A DNA stretch of 60,710 nt, from positions 1-60,710 of the forward strand of contig JAKVKZ010000012.1 of NCBI GenBank assembly GCA_022484565.1, in the 5' to 3' direction. A model generated the notes under the pieces. The model saw only the letters and a program-made list of their open reading frames with translations. It made no database searches and had not been told where the DNA came from. Positions 46,555 through 56,691 of the stretch are shown here, piece by piece. Position 1 is the stretch's first letter, and every line of letters begins with the position of its first letter. Position numbers and translations under genes: made by a program. The stretch is from Muribaculaceae bacterium. Lineage in GTDB: Bacteria > Bacteroidota > Bacteroidia > Bacteroidales > Muribaculaceae.

Positions 46555-47798
46555 TATTCGTCTCTCAATGCCTCCACCGGGCTTATTTTTGTGGCTTTCA
46601 CTGCGGGGAAGAATCCTGCTGCTGCTCCTGCAATTATCAGCACCACCGTCACTTCTATTGCTATGTCGAGGCCCACGGTTGGGTTGCTGAACACTGTCAT
46701 ATCTTCTCCGGCATTCATCTTGTCGAGTATTGATTTCGCCAGTTCGGTGAGCATCACTCCGGCTATCATGCCAATGTAGCCGAACAGGGCGGTGATTGCC
46801 ACGCTTTCGGTCACTATCATTGTCAGTATGCTTCTTGGCTTTGCTCCGATGGCTCGGCGCACGCCTATTTCATGTGTGCGCTCCTTCACGCTCACAAACA
46901 TTATGTTGCTCACGCCCACTATTCCGCTCAGCAGTGTCAGCAGACCTATCACCCAAATTGCAATGGTCATGTATCCCATGCCTTGCTGTGCTTGGGCTTG
47001 TTGGGTGAAACTGTTCTCAACCCACACTGCTGAATTGTCGGTTGGGTCAAACGAGTGCTTCTTTCCAAGGTCGTGGCGTACGTTTTTCTCAAATTTTGCG
47101 CTTGTTGTGGTGTCGCTGATGCCGCTGGTCAGCATCGTTATGGCGTTCAATTTGTCTTTGTTGCTGAATGCCGTTTCCATTGTCGTGAACGGTATGTAGG
47201 CCATTGAGCCTTCTTTGTCTAGGTGGTTAAGGCAGACGCCCACTATCACGTACGACATGTTTGCCGCTTTCAGCCGTTCGCCCACTGGATTCCCGTTGTG
47301 CTTGAAGAGTATATCCACGCAATGTTGGCTGATTACCATCACTTTGCGCTTCTCTTTTATGTCTTTGGCGTTGATGAATCTCCCTGATGTGATTGTAATC
47401 GGTTCGGCTTCTATGTAGTCGGGATGTACTCCGCTCATCGGGCAACTTAAATAGTCGCTTTCGCTGTTCAGTGTCACTGTGTCGTTGCTCACTGATGGGC
47501 TTACCTCTTTTGTCTGTGACTTGTGCCGTTGTTCCAGCATTGTTGCGTCGTTTTTTCTCAGGTTGATGCTGCGGTTCTCCTTGTATCCTCCGTATGGCTT
47601 TGTTGTCGTCCCGGGGTAGATTTTCACAGTGTTCACATTAGTGAGCGACATTGCGTTTTTGAATGCGTTGGTAAGTCCATTGCCTGCTCCGAGCAGCACA
47701 ATCAGCATGAATATGCCCCAAGCCACAGCAAACCCCGTCAGTGCGGTTCTCAGCTTGTTGTGCCTCAAGGCTTGCAGTATCTCGTTGATTGTGTCCAT
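46554..47798 (-). CDS. MacB-like ABC exporter permease (copy 1)
   Basis: This 414-aa permease is homologous to copy 2: N-terminal helix (GFAVAWGIFMLIVLLGAG), MacB_PCD domain, and the C-terminal VSVKERTHEIGVRRAIGAKPRSI block before three membrane helices. Its ATP-binding partner lies 4 bp upstream and the next permease overlaps by one base (TAATG). The stop/start overlap suggests fixed stoichiometry of the two. Substrate unknown: macrolide-like drugs or lipoproteins are family options. Confidence 0.9.
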   Translation of the reverse strand: MDTINEILQALRHNKLRTALTGFAVAWGIFMLIVLLGAGNGLTNAFKNAMSLTNVNTVKIYPGTTTKPYGGYKENRSINLRKNDATMLEQRHKSQTKEVSPSVSNDTVTLNSESDYLSCPMSGVHPDYIEAEPITITSGRFINAKDIKEKRKVMVISQHCVDILFKHNGNPVGERLKAANMSYVIVGVCLNHLDKEGSMAYIPFTTMETAFSNKDKLNAITMLTSGISDTTTSAKFEKNVRHDLGKKHSFDPTDNSAVWVENSFTQQAQAQQGMGYMTIAIWVIGLLTLLSGIVGVSNIMFVSVKERTHEIGVRRAIGAKPRSILTMIVTESVAITALFGYIGMIAGVMLTELAKSILDKMNAGEDMTVFSNPTVGLDIAIEVTVVLIIAGAAAGFFPAVKATKISPVEALRDE

Positions 47799-47802
47799 TC
47801 AG

Positions 47803-48462
47803 CTATTCGTCGATTATTCCGTCTTTTATGTGGATTATGCGGTTGGTCTTTTCCGCAACTGTCTTGTCGTGAGTCACCACCACTATTGTCATCCCGCTCT
47901 GGTTCAGTTCGCGGAAAATGTTCATCACGTCGATTGATGTTTTGCTGTCGAGTGCGCCGGTCGGCTCGTCGGCAAGGATTATCTGCGGTTGGGTTATCAA
48001 TGCCCTTGCAATTGCCACTCTCTGCTTCTGTCCGCCGCTCAGTTCATTCGGCAGATGGTCGGCGCGGTCGGCAAGGCCCATCCTTTCCAACTGCTCCATC
48101 GCCATCGCGTTGCGCTTCTTGCGTCCTATGCCTTGATAGAAAAGTGGCAGTGCGGCGTTTTCCATCGCGTCTTTGTAGCTTATCAGGTTGAACGATTGGA
48201 ACACAAAGCCTATCATCCTGTTTCTCAGTTCAGCTGCTTTGTTTTCGCTTAGATTTCTCACCAATGTGCCGTTGAGCAGATATTCGCCTGAATCGTAGTT
48301 GTCAAGTATGCCGAGAATATTCAGCAAGGTCGATTTTCCTGAGCCTGATGCGCCCATTATCGACACTAATTCGCCTTTCCCAATGTGAAGGTTGATGCCT
48401 TTAAGCACATGTAGCGGCACTGCGCCTTGATATGTCTTGTTGATGTCTTTTAGCAGAATCAT
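47803..48462 (-). CDS. MacB/LolD-type ABC transporter ATP-binding protein
   Basis: This 219-aa ATPase powers the exporter. Walker A GASGSGKS at 37-44, Q-loop at Gln89, signature LSGGQ at 141-145, Walker B with catalytic Glu (IILADE, 161-166) and the switch His198 are all present. The NLISYKDAMEN region after the Q-loop is typical of the MacB/LolD group. It is the first gene of the operon: a -7 element lies at 48502-48509. Confidence 0.94.
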   Translation of the reverse strand: MILLKDINKTYQGAVPLHVLKGINLHIGKGELVSIMGASGSGKSTLLNILGILDNYDSGEYLLNGTLVRNLSENKAAELRNRMIGFVFQSFNLISYKDAMENAALPLFYQGIGRKKRNAMAMEQLERMGLADRADHLPNELSGGQKQRVAIARALITQPQIILADEPTGALDSKTSIDVMNIFRELNQSGMTIVVVTHDKTVAEKTNRIIHIKDGIIDE

Positions 48463-48501
48463 CTGTTACTTTTCTAATCTATATATTTATTTTAGACGCT
48501 T

Positions 48502-48509
48502 CAAAGTTA
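48502..48509 (-). promoter_or_regulatory. -7 element of the MacAB-like operon
   Basis: The minus strand reads TAACTTTG, about 40 nt upstream of the ATPase ATG. Confidence 0.6.
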
Positions 48510-48586
48510 CGAAAAGTTGCAGCAATTTCTATGTTTTTCATTGTATAAGCACAAATTCATTCATTGCATGGGAATGTGTTGGCTGT

Positions 48587-48748
48587 TCAAGTGAGAAAAC
48601 AATCAGTTTGATTCCATCGGCAAATTTTATTTTTTGTGATGATTTTCTGAATGTCTTCTTCAATTTTTTTGCATTTGCAAAATAATGTTGTTTCTTTTGT
48701 AATGTCTTCCCAGCTAGCGGTATCTACAATTCCACCGCCAGCAATCAT
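48587..48748 (-). CDS. Possible small protein (53 aa)
   Basis: The frame begins MIAGGGIVDTASWEDITKE and has Cys in KCKKIEED; it is coding-like by eye, and the same frame continues upstream for a few more sense codons (GEVS-type ITVKIHE). No promoter or family seen. It lies in the 500-bp region between the ABC operon promoter and the ATPase cassette. Confidence 0.25.
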   Translation of the reverse strand: MIAGGGIVDTASWEDITKETTLFCKCKKIEEDIQKIITKNKICRWNQTDCFLT

Positions 48749-48920
48749 GCTTACTTCATGTATTTTTACAGTTATGGCGGATATGGCGTGGCTGAGACGG
48801 GTGATCGTTGCTTTGCCAATTCAGTCCGAGCCGTTCGTGACCCTCGGTGAGCGCATTTCGGCTTTGAGGATTATTCGGCTTCCTGATTTCTCAAAACAAA
48901 TCTTAGCACAAATCCATAAC

Positions 48921-48968
48921 ATCCTATTGCATTCAGCATCGTGGCTTTTTGCAGTGGGATGTTTTTTT
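48921..48968. repeat. Cassette-flanking hairpin element, left copy
   Basis: A 48-bp element with arms ATCCTATTGCA and TGCAGTGGGAT, a central segment containing AGCATC, and a following GTTTTTTT tract. It is nearly identical to 50459-50505 beyond the ATPase gene. As a plus-strand hairpin with a T-run, it is also terminator-like. Confidence 0.8.
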
Positions 48969-49082
48969 CGCCAACTTTCCGAATGAAAATCTGCCAATCC
49001 TCCGAATGAAAAGTCGCCAACTTTCCGAATTGGAATCCGCCAATCCTCCGAATAAAAAGTCGCCAACTTTCCGAATTGTCCC
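48969..49082. repeat. Five ~23-bp alternating repeats upstream of the ATPase gene
   Basis: Units start at 48969, 48991, 49015, 49038 and 49061, each with a core like CGCCAAC or GCCAATC and CCGAAT. Two subtypes alternate (CGCCAACTTTCCGAAT and GCCAATCCTCCGAAT), giving a ~46-bp higher period. They end 10 bp before the -7 element and fill the promoter-proximal region. Confidence 0.85.
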
Positions 49083-49092
49083 AAAAATATTG

Positions 49093-49100
49093 TATATTTG
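49093..49100 (+). promoter_or_regulatory. -7 element of the AAA_14 ATPase gene
   Basis: The plus strand reads TATATTTG, 23-30 nt upstream of the ATG at 49123, just after the repeats. It invalidates upstream in-frame starts. Confidence 0.7.
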
Positions 49101-49122
49101 CCGCACAAAATATAATAGAGAT

Positions 49123-50397
49123 ATGAAAGGATATAAGAAAAGGATAGCAGACAATCTCCTGAAAGATAAGCTGGAGTATATCGGTGGCGTTCTTATTGAA
49201 GGACCTAAGTGGTGTGGTAAGACCACGACCGCAGAACAGATTGCCGGAAGTGTCCTTTATATGGCAAATCCTGAGGATCTGGCTGCAAATTTGCAGATGG
49301 CTGAAATCAGTCCAAGTACTTTGCTCGATGGCAAGTCTCCGCGGCTTGTCGATGAATGGCAGATAGCTCCCCAACTGTGGGATGCGGCAAGATTCCAGAT
49401 TGACCATCGCCAAGGTCCTGGTCAATTCATTTTCACTGGTTCAGCGGTTCCTGCCGATAAAAGTAAAATTCTGCATAGTGGAACAGGTCGCTTTTCTTGG
49501 TTGATTATGCGCCCTATGAGTTTGTGGGAAAGCGGTGAGTCAAATGGCAAGGTCAGTTTCGGCTCATTATTTAGCGATGGAGGCATGATTGCAGCTCAAA
49601 ACGATTTGGATTTGAACGACATTGCCCGATTGCTTTGCCGTGGCGGTTGGCCGCAAGCCACAAATCTTGACGGAGAACACGCTCTCAAAATCTCTGCCGA
49701 TTATTATGAGGCGGTTGTTAAAACAGATATATCGCGGGCCGATGGTGTGAAACGTGACGAAATCATCACTCGACGGCTCATGCGTTCTTATGCAAGAAAT
49801 CAAGGAACGCAAACTACAATCCGCTCTATCCGTGATGACATCACTGTCAACGAGCCAAAAATAATGGACGAGGAAACTGTGGCCTCCTACATTAATGCAT
49901 TAAAGCGTATTTTTGTCATTGAGGATTCTATGGCGTGGAGCCCTAATTTGCGCTCAAAGACGGCCATCAGGACATCCGATACAAGGTATTTTATCGACCC
50001 GTCAATAGCGACTTGCGCTTTGGGCGTTGGTCCAAAGGACATGATAACCGATCTGAATACCATGGGATTGATATTTGAAACAATGGCCGTTAGAGATTTG
50101 CGGGTTTATGCCGATGCGCTTGAAGGCAACATATTTCATTACCGTGATAAGAATGGACTGGAATGTGATGCAGTCATGCATCTTCGTAATGGTCAATACG
50201 GGTTGATAGAGATAAAATTAGGTGGTGACACTCTAATTGAGGCAGGTGCAAAGACCCTGCGTGCCTTGGCTGATGAAATTGACACTACAAAGATGCATAA
50301 ACCGGCATTTTTGATGGTGTTAACAGCCGTTGGCAAGTATGCTTATCAACGTAAAGATGGCGTTTTTGTGGCACCGATAGGATGTTTGCGTCCTTAA
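49123..50397 (+). CDS. AAA_14/DUF4143 family ATPase
   Basis: This 424-aa protein has an N-terminal P-loop ATPase domain: Walker A GPKWCGKT at 27-34, Walker B-like LVDEW at 75-79, and the sensor segment FIFTGS at 103-108. The C-terminal DUF4143 domain (about 220-410) ends in a restriction-nuclease-like pattern, LECDAVMHLRNG then LIEIKLGG, with the Glu-x-Lys typical of PD-(D/E)xK folds. These ATPases are widespread in bacteria and archaea; function is uncertain. Start at 49123 (MKGYKKRIADNLL) fits the family and the promoter at 49093. It is flanked on both sides by the same 48-bp hairpin element, suggesting a mobile cassette. Confidence 0.9.
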   Translation: MKGYKKRIADNLLKDKLEYIGGVLIEGPKWCGKTTTAEQIAGSVLYMANPEDLAANLQMAEISPSTLLDGKSPRLVDEWQIAPQLWDAARFQIDHRQGPGQFIFTGSAVPADKSKILHSGTGRFSWLIMRPMSLWESGESNGKVSFGSLFSDGGMIAAQNDLDLNDIARLLCRGGWPQATNLDGEHALKISADYYEAVVKTDISRADGVKRDEIITRRLMRSYARNQGTQTTIRSIRDDITVNEPKIMDEETVASYINALKRIFVIEDSMAWSPNLRSKTAIRTSDTRYFIDPSIATCALGVGPKDMITDLNTMGLIFETMAVRDLRVYADALEGNIFHYRDKNGLECDAVMHLRNGQYGLIEIKLGGDTLIEAGAKTLRALADEIDTTKMHKPAFLMVLTAVGKYAYQRKDGVFVAPIGCLRP

Positions 50398-50458
50398 GTT
50401 TTACGGTAATAATATTCAGGATAATTATATACTTCAAATAATATCGTTGATCAATAAT

Positions 50459-50505
50459 ATCCCATTGCATTTAGCATCTATGCTCTTTGCAGTGGGATTT
50501 TTTTT
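50459..50505. repeat. Cassette-flanking hairpin element, right copy
   Basis: The near-copy of 48921-48968: arms ATCCCATTGCA and TGCAGTGGGAT (one G-U), an inner AGCAT/ATGCT stem, then TTTTTTT. On the plus strand it is a strong rho-independent terminator for the ATPase gene. Confidence 0.85.
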
Positions 50506-50840
50506 AATATCCAAAATGAGAATGCACCAGATTTCCAACTGATACAAATTTATAGAATATCAAATCCGTTAAAAATCCGAATAAATGGCTTATAAATATC
50601 CTTTTTTCTTGTATTCTTGCAGCTCTATATCACTATTTTTGCTTAAAGTTCTTTGACACGTTGAAATTGTTCTTCTTCCAAATGCGATAGGTGGCATTCA
50701 GCGAGGAATATTCATATCCACATTTTCATGGCTTGCGTAATTAAAAATCAATTGAAGCATTTTAATGGATTAGGTTTATCGTTCTTTCAGCCAATTCAAA
50801 ATTTTGCAAAAAATATTTTCAATTAATTGCACGCAATGAA
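50506..50840. other. 335-bp region without genes
   Basis: AT-rich. It contains one plus-strand -7 match (TATTTTTG, 50634-50641) leading into no open frame, and otherwise nothing I can identify. Confidence 0.4.
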
Positions 50841-51435
50841 ACTGTCCCACGCAGTTGTCCCAAAGGTAGCAGAGAAGATGGTGAAAAAATTTTGGGACAA
50901 GCCTAAGAATTGCGTTGTAATAGGTTGAGAATTAGGCAACAGCGTTGTCCTAAACTATCCCACGTCATTGTCCCAAAATCAGCAGAACAGATAGTGGAAA
51001 ACTTTCGGGACAAGCCCAAAAATTGCGTGGTAATAAGTTGAAAATTAAGCGATAGCACTGTCCCAAACTGTCCCACGCAGTTGTCCCAAATCCAGCAGAG
51101 AAGATGGTGAAAAACTTTCGGGACAAACCTGAAAATTGCGTTGTAATAGGTTGAGAATTAGGCGAAAGCGTTGTCCCAAGCTGTACCACACAGTTGTCCC
51201 AAATCCAGCAGAATAGATGGTGAAAAACTTTCGGGACAAAGCCGAAAATTGCGTTGTAATAGGTTGAAAATTAGGCGACAGCGTTGTCCCAAACTGTCCC
51301 ACACAGTTGTCCCAAATCCAGCAGAATAGATGGTGAAAAAATTTCGGGACAAGCCTAAAAATTGCGTTGTAATAGGTTGAAAATTAGGCGATAGCACTGT
51401 CCCAAGCTGTCCCACGTCATTGTCCCAAAATCAGC
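50841..51435. repeat. 113-bp tandem repeats, five full copies
   Basis: Units start at 50857, 50970, 51083, 51196 and 51309, each exactly 113 bp; partial units precede (50841-50856) and follow (51422-51435). Every unit starts GTCCCAAA and later holds the near-inverted partner TTTCGGGAC, so each can form a hairpin; a second TGTCCCAC lies near its end. Copies differ by scattered substitutions. The array lies between convergent ATPase and AraC genes. Frames within it are low-quality and not annotated. Confidence 0.95.
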
Positions 51436-51443
51436 ATTGAAAA

Positions 51444-52367
51444 TTATAGTTGTTGTATTTTTTGAATTAATTTCTTATTTATGCCGGCATCATTAATGTT
51501 ATGACGTTTTACACGCAGTCGATATTCTTTAGGTGATATGCCTACATATTGTTTGAAATATTTGCCGAAGAATGTTTGTGTCGGGAAATTCATATCGGCA
51601 GCTATTTCCTTTATGCTGGCATCGGAATATTCAAGCATCTGTTTGGAATCGGAAATCACAAGGCTCACAATCCACTGGAGCACCGTCATCCCGCTTTTCT
51701 CCTTGATGATAGTGGAAAAATATTTAGGCGATATACATAGCTCATCGGCATAAAATGTTACTGTCCGCTCCTTGCGGTAATGATTGTATAGGGAAATCAG
51801 AAATTTTTGGAATACGATGTCGTTGTGGTCTTTAGGCAGGGGACTGAGTGGCTGGTTGGTTATGAGCATATTGATTGTTTCGTAGCAAATAGTCTGGGCA
51901 TAGCTTTTTAGCAGTTCAACCACTATCACCCGTTTTTCATCTGACATGGCTGCCAAATCTACTTTCTCTAAGCGTTCGCGCAATTCACGCGTCAATAATG
52001 TTATCAGCTCAAATTGGTCGGAATCGAGAGTGATGCATGGATGTTGGCGTAGGTACAATTGGTTCTCAATGCCAATAACGCGGTTTACTATAGGAATTAT
52101 GAAGCCAAGGTTGCTGGCAAGAGCCTCGCCTTTGAGGTCATCACTTACGTAAAGTCTGCGGACTAAAGTGGACGGCATGTAGAAGCAGATGTCACCTGCA
52201 TGGATATTGTAGATTTCGGCACCGATTAAGACCTTGATTTCACCTTGCTCGCAGATAAAGGCACCTACAGTGTCGGAAAGCTGAATGTCCTCGTTTCCCA
52301 TTTGTTGGGAAAGGAAATTGGCGTCAAGCTTGATGCAGGAGAATGGAAGAAACTGGTCGTTTACCAT
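51444..52367 (-). CDS. AraC-family transcriptional regulator
   Basis: This 307-aa regulator has an N-terminal cupin-like sensor (GAFICEQGEIKVLIGAEIYNIHAGDICFYMPS) and a C-terminal two-HTH AraC domain from about residue 205, with FYADELCISPKYFSTIIKEKSGMTVLQWI and IKEIAADMNFPTQTFFGKYFKQYVGISPKEYR. The start at 52367 is chosen because a -7 (TATTTTTG, 52387-52394) overlaps a longer TTG frame. It is divergent from the RND efflux operon at 52559 and is its likely regulator. Downstream are the 113-bp repeats. Confidence 0.93.
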   Translation of the reverse strand: MVNDQFLPFSCIKLDANFLSQQMGNEDIQLSDTVGAFICEQGEIKVLIGAEIYNIHAGDICFYMPSTLVRRLYVSDDLKGEALASNLGFIIPIVNRVIGIENQLYLRQHPCITLDSDQFELITLLTRELRERLEKVDLAAMSDEKRVIVVELLKSYAQTICYETINMLITNQPLSPLPKDHNDIVFQKFLISLYNHYRKERTVTFYADELCISPKYFSTIIKEKSGMTVLQWIVSLVISDSKQMLEYSDASIKEIAADMNFPTQTFFGKYFKQYVGISPKEYRLRVKRHNINDAGINKKLIQKIQQL

Positions 52368-52558: not shown

Positions 52559-53578
52559 ATGAAAGTCATTAACATCATCATTGCTGTTTCGCTGGCTGCC
52601 TCAATCACAGCCTGCACTGGAAAGCAGAGCGACCAAGGAGTAAAGCCGACATTGGTAAAAACAATGATTGTGTCCGACGACGCTACGGCAGGAACACGCA
52701 GCTATGTGGGCACAGTGGAAGAATCGACGGGGTCGATGCTTAGTTTTTCGGGCATGGGGACAGTGTCGCAAGTGCTCGCTGACGAAGGTCAAGCCGTTAG
52801 GCAAGGTCAAGTGTTGGCCGTATTGGACAAAACCACAGCCAATAACTCTTATGAGATAGCTAAATCAACATTGAAACAGACTCAGGACGCATTCAACCGT
52901 CTGAACACACTATATAAGAAAGGGAGTCTGCCAGAGATAAAATACATTGAGATACAGACGCAGTTGGCACAAGCACAGGCAGGCGAAAGAATTGCCCGCA
53001 AAAGTCTCGACGATTGTGTGCTGCATGCGCCATTTTCGGGATATATTTCGCAACGTAATGTTGATATAGGCAATAACGTAGCACCTGGAGTTAGTTGCTT
53101 CAAACTCGTGAAAATCGATAACGTAAAAGTTAAAGTAGCTGTCCCTGAAAAGGAGATAGCAGGCATCCATCAGGGACAAAACATTGGATTCACTGTTGAT
53201 GCTTTGGAAGGACGGCAATTCGTAGGACGCGTAAGTGAGAAAGGCGTGCAGGCCAATCCTTTGAGTCATACCTACGACGTGAAACTATCACTTGCCAATC
53301 CTCGTCATGAACTGATGCCGGGAATGGTGTGTAGCGTGAACATCAACACCTCAGGCGCAAAAGGCGCTATTGTGGTGCCGCAAGGAGCTGTGATGGTGGA
53401 GGAGAGTGGAAAATTTGTGTGGCTCTCCGACGGCAGCAAGGCTATAAAGCGTAATGTGACTGTTGGTGGAGTGAACGATGTCGGGGTGATAATTACCGGC
53501 GGACTGAACATAGGCGACAAGATAATAGTGGAAGGTCAGAACAAAGTGAGCGACGGAACTAAAATCAAAGAGCAATGA
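52559..53578 (+). CDS. RND efflux periplasmic adaptor lipoprotein
   Basis: This 339-aa HlyD-type adaptor is anchored by a lipidated Cys19 (LAASITAC). The lipoyl half (FSGMGTVSQVLADEGQAVRQGQVLAVLD), an alpha-hairpin (NSYEIAKSTLKQTQDAFNRLNTLYKKG through QAGERIARKSL), the second lipoyl half (CVLHAPFSGYISQRNVDIG) and the beta-barrel follow. It links the pump encoded next to a TolC channel. It overlaps the pump gene by 4 bp (ATGA), and is the first gene of the operon opposite the AraC regulator. Confidence 0.94.
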   Translation: MKVINIIIAVSLAASITACTGKQSDQGVKPTLVKTMIVSDDATAGTRSYVGTVEESTGSMLSFSGMGTVSQVLADEGQAVRQGQVLAVLDKTTANNSYEIAKSTLKQTQDAFNRLNTLYKKGSLPEIKYIEIQTQLAQAQAGERIARKSLDDCVLHAPFSGYISQRNVDIGNNVAPGVSCFKLVKIDNVKVKVAVPEKEIAGIHQGQNIGFTVDALEGRQFVGRVSEKGVQANPLSHTYDVKLSLANPRHELMPGMVCSVNINTSGAKGAIVVPQGAVMVEESGKFVWLSDGSKAIKRNVTVGGVNDVGVIITGGLNIGDKIIVEGQNKVSDGTKIKEQ

Positions 53579-56500
53579 ACAGGAAAATGCGGATGGACGC
53601 CGTGGAAGGAGTGATGCGCCATCGAAGTATCATGGTGTTGCTGCTTGCCTTCTTTGTAATTTTCGGTATATATTCACTCGTGAAGATGCCCAAGAATGAG
53701 TTCCCGACCTTTACCATAAGGCAAGGAGTAGTGGTTGGAGTTTACCCGGGTGCTACTTCAAGCGAAGTGGAGGAGCAACTCACCAAGCCTTTGGAGAAAT
53801 TCCTGTGGGGATTTAAGGAAATCAAGAAAGCTAAGACCTACAGTAAGACGAAAGACGGGATTAGCTATGTGTTTATCGAACTTAACGATAATGTAACTGA
53901 CAAAGACGAGTTTTGGAGCAAATTCAAGCATCGGCTTGAACAATTCAAGAGCGAACTGCCAAGCGGAGTGCTTGCCCTGATAGCAAATGATGACTTCGGC
54001 GACACATCGGCCATGCTTATTACTCTTGAAAGCAACGACAAGACCTACCGTGAGCTGCATAACTATATGACTACGCTTCAGGACAGTCTGCGAACAATTC
54101 CGGAAGTGGCGAATCTGCGACTTTATGGGGAGCAGCAGGAGCAGATTGATGTGTATATCGACCGTGACCGGCTGTCGGACTATGGCATCAATGCCGCCAC
54201 TTTGCTTAGTTCGCTGTCATCGCAAGGGATGACCATCATGAGCGGGTCGGTTGACGACCAACAGACTGTGAGGCCAATACACTTGAAGTCATCACTTGCT
54301 ACCGAGAACGACGTGGCAAACCAGATTGTGTATTCTGACCCTAACGGCAACGTGATTAGGCTGCGCGACATTGCCACCGTAAAGCGGGAATATCCTCATG
54401 CTGACAGTTATGTTAAGAACAATGGTAAGAAGTGCATAGTGCTTTCGCTGGAAATGGCGGAAGGTAACAATATAGTTCACTTTGGCGACAAGGTGAAGAA
54501 AGTGTTGACATCCTTTGAAAAGACATTGCCGCAAGATGTGACTATCTATCCGATAACCGACCAAAGTAAGGTGGTGAACGATTCAATCATCGACTTCTTA
54601 AAAGAGTTGCTGATAGCCATAGGTGCTGTGATACTGGTGATAATGCTGTTGCTGCCGATGCGTGTGGCAAGTGTGGCAGCGAGCACAATCCCTATATCCA
54701 TCTTCACCGCCCTTACGCTGTTCTACTCCCTTGGTATAGAACTTAACACCGTTACCCTTGCAGCGCTGATAGTGTCGTTGGGAATGATAGTTGATAATTC
54801 GATAGTGATTATAGACTGCTACATAGAAATGATTGACAAGGGCATGAGCCGTTGGCATGCCACGACTGCGGCTGCCAAGGAATTTGCAAAGTCTATTTTC
54901 AGTGCGACGCTTGCCATTTCCGTGACTTTCTTCCCGTTGCTGATAACGATGAAGGGCAGGATGCTCGACTTCGTGAAGTGGTTTCCTTATTCCATTTCAA
55001 TTGTGTTGTTCACATCGTTGCTTATAGCATTATTCGCCGTTCCGTCTCTGCAATATTCGTTCATTAAGAAGGGTCTGGCGAAGAAAGAGGAAAAGAAGGA
55101 CAAAAAGACGTTCCTCGACATAATGCAGAACGTGTACGACAAAATCATTACCGCCTGCTTCCGCCACCCTTGGATGACTTTAGGCGTGGGTTTGATAGCA
55201 GTGGTGCTTGGAGCTTTGCTTTATATGGTGCAGCCTCAAAAACTGATGCCTGATGCAGAGCGTAACCAGTTTGCAGTGGAAATCTATATGCCGACAGGAA
55301 CAGCTATAGAGCGTACAGCAGTTGTAGCCGACAGTCTGCGCGACATGATGCGTAAAGACGATAGGGTGGTGAACATCACCACATTCTACGGACAGAGTTC
55401 ACCACGGTTCCAGACGAGCTATGCTCCGCAACTTGGCGGAACAAACTTCGCGCAGTTCATTGTCAACACCAAAGGTAACCAAGAGACAAAAGACTTGATT
55501 ACCAAGTTCACGCCGATGTATGCCACATACTTTCCAGGAGCGCAAATCAGGTTCAAGCAACTTGACTACACTGATGCGGAGTCACCTGTGGAGATACGCT
55601 ACAGTGGTGACAACCTCACCGACTTGCATAAGGTCGCTACTCAAGCCGAGCAAATCATGAGGAGAGACAAGAACCTATTGCTCGTGCGCTCGAATTTTGA
55701 AGGTAATACGATTGGCCTTAACGTGGCTCTCGACAATGACGAGGCAAACCGACTTGGGATCAACAAGACCATGCTTGCCATGAACCTTGCCACACGTTTC
55801 GGCAGTGGCATTCCGCTCACTACAGTCTGGGAAGGTGACTATCCTGTGAATGTTATGCTAAAGGACAGCCACGATGGACTGCAACATCCTGATGATCTCG
55901 ACAATGCCACTGTTAGTGGCATGTTGCCCGGGCTAAATGTGCCATTGAGGCAGATTGCCACTGTGAATCCCGATTGGACCGACGGCATGATAGTAAGGCG
56001 TAATGGTGTGCGTACGGTGTCGGTACTTGCCGATGTGGTGAGAGGAGTAAACCTCAACAAGGTGACTGATAAAGTGCTTGATGACTTGAAAGAGATTAAG
56101 TTACCTGACGGAGTGCGGATGACACCGGGTGGTCAACGTTTTAGCGACAATGAAAATGGCCCGCAGATATATGGCGGTCTCAGCATATCGGTAGTGGTAA
56201 TTCTGATAATCCTGCTGCTCCATTTTCACGACATACGGCTGACGATGCTTATAATGCTTTCGCTTGTGTTCTCGTTGCCTGGCGCTGCTGTGGGCATAGC
56301 GATAATGCATCAGGATGTGAGTGTGACAGCCACATTGGGTATGATATCTCTGATGGGAATTATAGTGCGTAATGGTATCATCATGATTGACTATGCCGAA
56401 GTGCTTAGGAAAGGGGAGCGTATAAGTGCCAAGCAGGCCGCTTTGCAGGCTGCAAAGCGCAGATTGAGACCTATATTTCTTACCAGTGCGGCTGCTTCAA

Positions 56501-56691
56501 TGGGAGTAATCCCTATGGCTATTCAGAACTCTCCGATGTGGGGACCGATGGGCGTTGTGGTATGCTTTGGAACAATAATATCGATGTTCTTTGTGATAAC
56601 AATGATACCGATAGGCTATTGGATGATTTACAGGTTCAAAGACAGTCGCCGCAGGCTGAAATTCACTGAAACAGATGTAAATGTCAATTAA
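53575..56691 (+). CDS. RND multidrug efflux pump (AcrB-like)
   Basis: This 1038-aa HAE1-type inner-membrane proton antiporter has two six-helix halves and large periplasmic loops. TM1 with RHRSIMVLLLAFFVIF is followed by YPGATSSEVEEQLTKPLE. In TM4 the proton-relay region is GMIVDNSIVIID, that is Asp-Asn where AcrB has Asp-Asp; TM10 has IIVRNGIIMIDYAE with Arg where AcrB has Lys. Such variants appear in Bacteroidetes pumps I recall and are not necessarily inactive. It is coupled to the adaptor (4-bp overlap) and followed 10 bp later by the TolC gene. Confidence 0.95.
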   Translation: MNRKMRMDAVEGVMRHRSIMVLLLAFFVIFGIYSLVKMPKNEFPTFTIRQGVVVGVYPGATSSEVEEQLTKPLEKFLWGFKEIKKAKTYSKTKDGISYVFIELNDNVTDKDEFWSKFKHRLEQFKSELPSGVLALIANDDFGDTSAMLITLESNDKTYRELHNYMTTLQDSLRTIPEVANLRLYGEQQEQIDVYIDRDRLSDYGINAATLLSSLSSQGMTIMSGSVDDQQTVRPIHLKSSLATENDVANQIVYSDPNGNVIRLRDIATVKREYPHADSYVKNNGKKCIVLSLEMAEGNNIVHFGDKVKKVLTSFEKTLPQDVTIYPITDQSKVVNDSIIDFLKELLIAIGAVILVIMLLLPMRVASVAASTIPISIFTALTLFYSLGIELNTVTLAALIVSLGMIVDNSIVIIDCYIEMIDKGMSRWHATTAAAKEFAKSIFSATLAISVTFFPLLITMKGRMLDFVKWFPYSISIVLFTSLLIALFAVPSLQYSFIKKGLAKKEEKKDKKTFLDIMQNVYDKIITACFRHPWMTLGVGLIAVVLGALLYMVQPQKLMPDAERNQFAVEIYMPTGTAIERTAVVADSLRDMMRKDDRVVNITTFYGQSSPRFQTSYAPQLGGTNFAQFIVNTKGNQETKDLITKFTPMYATYFPGAQIRFKQLDYTDAESPVEIRYSGDNLTDLHKVATQAEQIMRRDKNLLLVRSNFEGNTIGLNVALDNDEANRLGINKTMLAMNLATRFGSGIPLTTVWEGDYPVNVMLKDSHDGLQHPDDLDNATVSGMLPGLNVPLRQIATVNPDWTDGMIVRRNGVRTVSVLADVVRGVNLNKVTDKVLDDLKEIKLPDGVRMTPGGQRFSDNENGPQIYGGLSISVVVILIILLLHFHDIRLTMLIMLSLVFSLPGAAVGIAIMHQDVSVTATLGMISLMGIIVRNGIIMIDYAEVLRKGERISAKQAALQAAKRRLRPIFLTSAAASMGVIPMAIQNSPMWGPMGVVVCFGTIISMFFVITMIPIGYWMIYRFKDSRRRLKFTETDVNVN

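What the first reader, a model, noticed from the sequence alone, without database searches (positions are those of the whole stretch)
48921..50505. ATPase gene framed by two copies of one hairpin element
The AAA_14/DUF4143 gene lies between nearly identical 47-48-bp elements (48921-48968 and 50459-50505) in direct orientation, each a hairpin with following T-run. Such framing suggests a cassette that inserts at, or carries along, this element, with one copy serving as terminator. Related ATPases are often patchily distributed.
Basis: partly seen in the sequence, partly recalled or inferred. Interest (0 to 1): 0.7.

Follow-up and report, generated by a model that had tools for sequence, protein, structure and literature searches.

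The report
ATPase cassette with self-read DNA array
The two matching hairpins frame a widespread ATPase-nuclease gene that travels between very different gut bacteria together with its own row of 23-base DNA signals, which its protein most likely recognises, so a very common 'defence candidate' of unknown function now has a testable DNA target.

Summary
The hairpins are real: 40/48 bases identical (83%, not 'nearly identical'), same orientation, both followed by T-runs, well beyond chance. They are unique to this locus among 397 genomes of the family, so they are not a common terminator.

The array is the larger finding. Of 217 close homologues from many phyla, 212 have an upstream array with best period exactly 23 bp, built from 14-bp cores (GCCAAnnnnCCGAA type). 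Core bases change on the tree together with two protein residues: 251 in the winged-helix recognition helix (bases 10-12) and 343 in the nuclease-like domain (bases 1-2). These are the five strongest of 5472 tests, so each ATPase very probably binds its own array.

Similar cassettes in unrelated contexts share DNA from about the array to the stop codon. In 15% of loci a flanking segment, often a terminator or gene end, is repeated on both sides (about 1% in controls). The window fits this: gene between two terminator-plus-array copies, the second decayed.

The family is PADLOC's PDC-S01, function untested. Self-mobilisation is not shown; no exact empty site was found.

The parts
48707..48850 (+). 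Open 3' fragment of an older gene (FPASGIYNS...VRAVRDPR, stop at 48848-48850) that hairpin 1 follows; looks truncated
   Evidence: reading frame; resembles the C-terminus of FISUMP-like proteins from memory only; no Pfam match
48891..49056 (+). Upstream copy of the framing repeat (leader, hairpin 1, array)
   Evidence: alignment to 50434-50585, score 102, shuffle maximum 47
48918..48967 (+). Hairpin 1 with T-run, terminator-like
   Evidence: fold z -6.7
48968..49082 (+). Array of five 23-bp units; cores start at 48970, 48993, 49016, 49039, 49062
   Evidence: conserved in 212 of 217 homologues
49093..49101 (+). TATATTTGC, promoter -7 element of Bacteroidota type, 31 nt after the start of the last core
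   Evidence: sequence; 29-32 nt, or the same plus about one 23-bp unit, is the commonest spacing in homologues
49123..50397 (+). AAA_14/DUF4143 ATPase (424 aa): AAA+ core, winged helix about 213-290, PD-(D/E)XK-like C-terminal domain (E347, D349, E363, K365)
49873..49875 (+). Codon of residue 251 (E), predicted to read core bases 10-12
50149..50151 (+). Codon of residue 343 (K), predicted to read core bases 1-2
50434..50585 (+). Downstream copy of the framing repeat: leader, hairpin 2, decayed array
50459..50506 (+). Hairpin 2 with T-run, probable terminator of the ATPase gene
   Evidence: fold z -5.9

Best explanation
The gene and the 23-bp array in front of its promoter form one compact transferable cassette running from the array to the stop codon. 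SHOWN by sequence statistics: the array is a near-constant part of the gene; the unit turns up in unrelated genomic contexts; the core sequence changes together with two protein residues. INFERRED: the ATPase binds its own array with the winged helix (bases 10-12) and the nuclease-like domain (bases 1-2). From there it regulates its own promoter, and probably uses the array as the recognised end when the cassette is copied or recombined. The two hairpins are the two copies of a terminator-plus-array segment duplicated when the cassette arrived or was duplicated at the 3' end of an older gene. The upstream copy keeps its array intact. The downstream copy keeps the hairpin, which can end the ATPase transcript, while its array has decayed.
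For: Best upstream period exactly 23 in 212 of 217 homologues, scattered downstream. Core conserved between neighbouring copies (about 4-15% mismatch per half-site base) but spacer not (30-50%). The five strongest of 5472 tree-aware co-change tests are residue 343 with bases 1-2 and residue 251 with bases 10-12 (same residues). 37 pairs 80-97% identical without homology in either flank: in 32 the shared DNA ends between 10 nt before and 6 nt after the stop codon. Flanking direct repeats at 32 of 211 loci against 3 of 192 control pairs. Other loci with the array repeated behind the gene and no second gene: L230, L195, L196, L254, L206, L289, L292, L273. Gene-less arrays. Window repeat includes hairpin and array.
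Against: No exact empty site was found. The two hairpins differ at 17% of positions, so the event is old and its mechanism cannot be read off. Most homologous loci (179 of 211) show no flanking repeat. At L280 the two hairpins are inverted relative to each other, so not all framing arose in one way. The right end carries no copy of the array motif. The array part of the downstream copy is weak (p = 0.001, one test among several). Binding, regulation and nuclease activity are unmeasured.
Confidence: 0.6

Rival explanations
1. The array is only an autoregulatory operator. The gene is a passive, frequently transferred accessory gene (for example defence) moved by ordinary recombination; the flanking repeats come from general rearrangement.
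For: Array sits at a constrained distance from the promoter; no dedicated mobility gene; PADLOC lists the family as a phage-defence candidate.
Against: Shared DNA repeatedly stops at the stop codon in unrelated contexts, which general recombination would not favour; flanking repeats far above control.
Confidence: 0.4
2. Tandem duplication of a [terminator-array-gene] unit followed by loss of the second gene left the downstream terminator and array; no insertion event is needed to explain the hairpin pair.
For: The downstream copy includes array sequence; the same layout at eight other loci; gene-less arrays and a decayed cassette in relatives; the end of a second ATPase with its terminator upstream in L052.
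Against: No trace of a second gene in the window; does not explain loci where the repeated segment is the 3' end of polA or mtgA.
Confidence: 0.35
3. The two hairpins are merely two members of a common terminator family, or alike by chance.
For: Both have the shape of an intrinsic terminator with a T-run.
Against: No third copy with up to 3 mismatches in the own genome or in 396 related genomes; homology extends beyond the hairpin on both sides; score far above random pairs.
Confidence: 0.03

Closest known systems
PDC-S01 (PADLOC phage-defence candidate; AAA_14 + DUF4143, COG1373)
   Same: The protein matches the PDC-S01 model over its whole length (E 8.9e-59); ATPase fused to a PD-(D/E)XK-like domain, as described for PDC-S01 in PMC12988326.
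   Different: The 23-bp array, its co-change with residues 251/343 and the array-to-stop cassette were not found in the papers read or searched; antiviral activity has not been shown for this gene.
Archaeal AAA+ ATPases Paby2304 (2qen) and SSO1545 (2fna)
   Same: Nearest solved folds over residues 1-300 (Z 14.1 and 13.5, rmsd 4.4 and 4.3).
   Different: Only 16% identity; no sequence match in the PDB; whether their genes have arrays was not tested.
Orc1/Cdc6 initiators bound to origin DNA (2qby)
   Same: AAA+ core plus winged helix that reads repeated DNA sites; among the top Foldseek matches.
   Different: No evidence of an origin function here; weak overall superposition (TM 0.23-0.28).
Iteron-bearing replicons and Tn7-type transposon ends
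   Same: Works like them in having tandem sites of about 22 bp next to the gene for the protein that reads them (general knowledge).
   Different: No Rep protein or DDE transposase belongs to the shared unit; sites at one end only in most loci; no terminal inverted copy.

Membership tests
AAA_14/DUF4143 ATPases (PDC-S01) | AAA_14 and DUF4143 domains / PDC-S01 profile | tested here: met
   Pfam over both cut-offs; PADLOC E 8.9e-59 over residues 1-422
AAA_14/DUF4143 ATPases (PDC-S01) | PD-(D/E)XK catalytic residues | tested here: met
   E347, D349, E363, K365 invariant in 51 aligned proteins and in the three paralogues checked; activity not measured
AAA_14/DUF4143 ATPases (PDC-S01) | antiviral activity | not testable with these tools
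   needs a phage assay; [quoted passage not shown]
Self-regulated module with own operators | sites at a constrained spacing to the gene's promoter and co-changing with the protein | tested here: met
   actual regulation not tested
Classical DDE transposon (IS/Tn7 type) | terminal inverted repeats | tested here: not met
   right end has no excess of array-like sequence on either strand
Classical DDE transposon (IS/Tn7 type) | short fixed-length target duplication | tested here: not met
   flanking repeats of 33-284 bp, varying from locus to locus, absent at most loci
Mobile genetic element (general) | discrete unit at different sites with an empty site in relatives | tested here: inconclusive
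   discrete unit at different sites: yes; exact empty site not found, only polA sites without the ATPase in congeners
Iteron replicon | autonomous replication | not testable with these tools
   needs an experiment

The most novel reading that the evidence does not exclude
A class of self-mobilising single-gene elements: one protein (AAA+ ATPase, winged helix, PD-(D/E)XK nuclease) reads its own 23-bp array as the left end, has its stop codon as the right end, settles behind gene ends with long target duplications, and leaves solo arrays when lost. The 'fourth most common defence system' would then be, wholly or partly, a selfish element.
Probability: 0.3. Interest if true: 0.93.

Novelty: new variant of a known kind. 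Interest (0 to 1): 0.78.

Why it matters
PDC-S01 is among the commonest predicted defence genes (most frequent single locus in rumen genomes, PMC13356809; fourth most common across prokaryotes, PMC12988326), yet what it does is unknown. A DNA target encoded next to the gene, with two residues that predict its sequence, makes the question directly testable by binding and swap experiments. It also suggests how up to 18 family members in one genome keep apart: each would read its own array. And it warns against counting the gene as 'defence' before asking whether it is a self-propagating cassette.

Tried and rejected
Common-terminator reading: no further copies in the genome or family and none in viral contigs. 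Known RNA family: no Rfam match in 47500-51800 even at E up to 1. Terminal inverted repeat: no excess. Empty site in plasmids: no second plasmid with the B. ovatus flanks; Collinsella plasmids share a backbone but carry different cassettes. Empty site in Gardnerella: G415 keeps the array but lacks the gene. Remnant of a second ATPase beside the cassette in the window: none. Phylum-wide sampling found no close homologue outside the own genome at E 1e-120. A covariation test with 55 sequences and APC correction was dominated by rare states and was superseded by a larger set and the tree-aware test; all three are reported. PHROGs: no match. The VIA list is dominated by the AAA part, so folds of the C-terminal domain were barely tested. 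The apparent 10-bp steps in core-to-promoter spacing (30, 42, 53) are partly an artefact of missing a degenerate last copy (30 + 23 = 53) and are not used as evidence of helical phasing.

Full report
OBSERVATION. The two hairpins lie where stated. They are 40/48 identical and directly oriented, fold far better than shuffles (z -6.7 and -5.9), and align with score 79 against a maximum of 34 in random pairs of window segments. The element occurs nowhere else in the own genome with up to 3 mismatches and in none of 396 other genomes of the family, so it is not a common terminator. Extending the alignment shows the repeated segment to be longer: 48891-49056 against 50434-50585, score 102 against a shuffle maximum of 47. 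The part beyond the hairpin aligns the 23-bp array with a decayed sequence (p = 0.001).

THE ARRAY. Directly after hairpin 1 lie five 23-bp units (48968-49082). The last core starts 31 nt before a Bacteroidota-type TATATTTGC element. The array occurs nowhere else in the genome. In 80 genome-contig homologues, 59-67% identical and from Bacteroidales, Lachnospiraceae, Treponema, Gardnerella, Verrucomicrobia and others, nearly all have an array of their own. With homologues from the family, plasmids and viral contigs added, the best upstream period is exactly 23 in 212 of 217, while downstream periods are scattered. Aligned on GCCAA, the unit is a 14-bp core GCCAAnnnnCCGAA (second half variable between loci) and a 9-bp A/T-rich spacer. 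Neighbouring copies differ by about 4-15% per base in the two half-sites but 30-50% in the spacer. The core follows the protein clade rather than the host (judged by eye). Other branches of the family in the same genome have arrays with other periods (32, 33, 39, 41); 14 of 17 paralogues tested are significant at p < 0.01 against 3 of 34 other genes of the window.

WHO READS THE ARRAY. On a tree built without the tested regions (152 sequences), I counted branches on which a protein residue and a core base both change. Of 5472 tests the five best are residue 343 with bases 1 and 2, and residue 251 with bases 11, 12 and 10 (p 9e-15 to 7e-7); the next is 9e-6. A mutual-information scan on 135 sequences also ranked these two residues highest, whereas a first scan with 55 sequences and APC correction did not single them out. 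In the AlphaFold model (mean pLDDT 91) residue 251 is at the start of the third helix of a winged helix, and residue 343 lies in a loop of the C-terminal domain next to invariant E347/D349 and E363/K365. The window protein has E251 and K343. The parsimonious reading is direct recognition of the array by its own ATPase through two domains. Binding itself is inferred, not measured.

THE UNIT MOVES. 37 pairs of homologues 80-97% identical, with no homology in either flank, share DNA that in 32 cases ends between 10 nt before and 6 nt after the stop codon; the left end is at or near the array in most (examples L058/L068, L081/L085, L294/L297, L303/L305). Some pairs share members, so they are not all independent. 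In Gardnerella three copies 90-97% identical have different right flanks beginning at the stop codon. The distribution is patchy: 138 of 397 family genomes.

FLANKING REPEATS. Direct repeats on both sides of the cassette within 700 bp occur at 32 of 211 loci; control pairs gave 3 of 192. In an earlier set with longer flanks about 13 of 81 loci had such repeats near the cassette against 0 of 150 control pairs. They include the 3' end of polA (L299; single in the 29 congeners examined, none with the ATPase beside it), the 3' end of mtgA (own genome C9), terminator hairpins (L251, L321), and the array itself downstream of the gene (L230, L195, L196, L254, L206, L289, L292, L273). 10 of the 32 fold strongly against 5 of 60 control segments. 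At L280 (pfkA) the two hairpins are inverted relative to each other, and related genomes hold a decayed cassette at pfkA and gene-less terminator-array copies elsewhere. So terminator-plus-array segments are duplicated and can persist alone. The window fits this: an upstream gene fragment, terminator, array, gene, terminator, decayed array. Which event produced the two copies (insertion with target duplication, or tandem duplication and loss of one gene) is not settled.

WHAT IT IS LIKE. The protein is PADLOC's PDC-S01, an ATPase-PD-(D/E)XK candidate of untested function and very high abundance (PMC12988326, PMC13356809). COG1373 is also listed among near-identical genes shared across gut genera (PMC10782964), and a Thermus member rose 6.6-fold in wild-type cells carrying a plasmid, an effect reported only when Argonaute was present (PMC4406477). 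Nearest solved folds are Paby2304 and SSO1545. The literature searches found no account of the array, but subscription journals and preprints are not held.

LIMITS. No exact empty site; MAG assemblies may collapse or misjoin repeats; the homologues are not a random sample; the co-change test uses parsimony on one tree; thresholds for arrays and repeats were chosen during the work; nothing biochemical was done. Self-mobilisation is therefore offered as the novel case (0.3), not as the finding.

Noticed in passing
50839-51436: Five copies of a 113-bp tandem repeat rich in GTCCCAA/TTGGGAC motifs between the ATPase and the AraC-type gene; not explained.
   Followed up: no
own genome G000 (18 DUF4143 matches, L002-L019): Other branches of the family have upstream arrays with other periods (32, 33, 39, 41 bp), each with its own sequence.
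   Followed up: partly
L185 (Gardnerella G415), G119:C113 (L368), G057:C59 (L369): Arrays without a gene, in two cases directly behind a terminator hairpin.
   Followed up: partly
L052: Upstream of the cassette lies the last part of another ATPase (VPIGCLRD*) with the same terminator.
   Followed up: partly
L130, L131, L132 (Collinsella plasmids): The same small HTH gene is followed by different ATPase cassettes with different arrays on related plasmid backbones.
   Followed up: partly
L014 (own genome C85): A DUF4143 gene with a short palindromic sequence (about 41 bp) repeated twice upstream and once directly downstream, and no array.
   Followed up: no
L186, L187 (Thermus thermophilus plasmids): Distant homologues without a recognisable upstream array, so the trait is not universal in the family.
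   Followed up: no
L251, 2925-4001: The neighbouring convergent open frame reads like another ATPase of this general type, so cassettes may cluster (judged by eye).
   Followed up: no
47803-48462 and 52559-56691: The cassette lies between an ABC transporter/efflux operon on the minus strand and an AraC-type regulator with an RND efflux operon.
   Followed up: no
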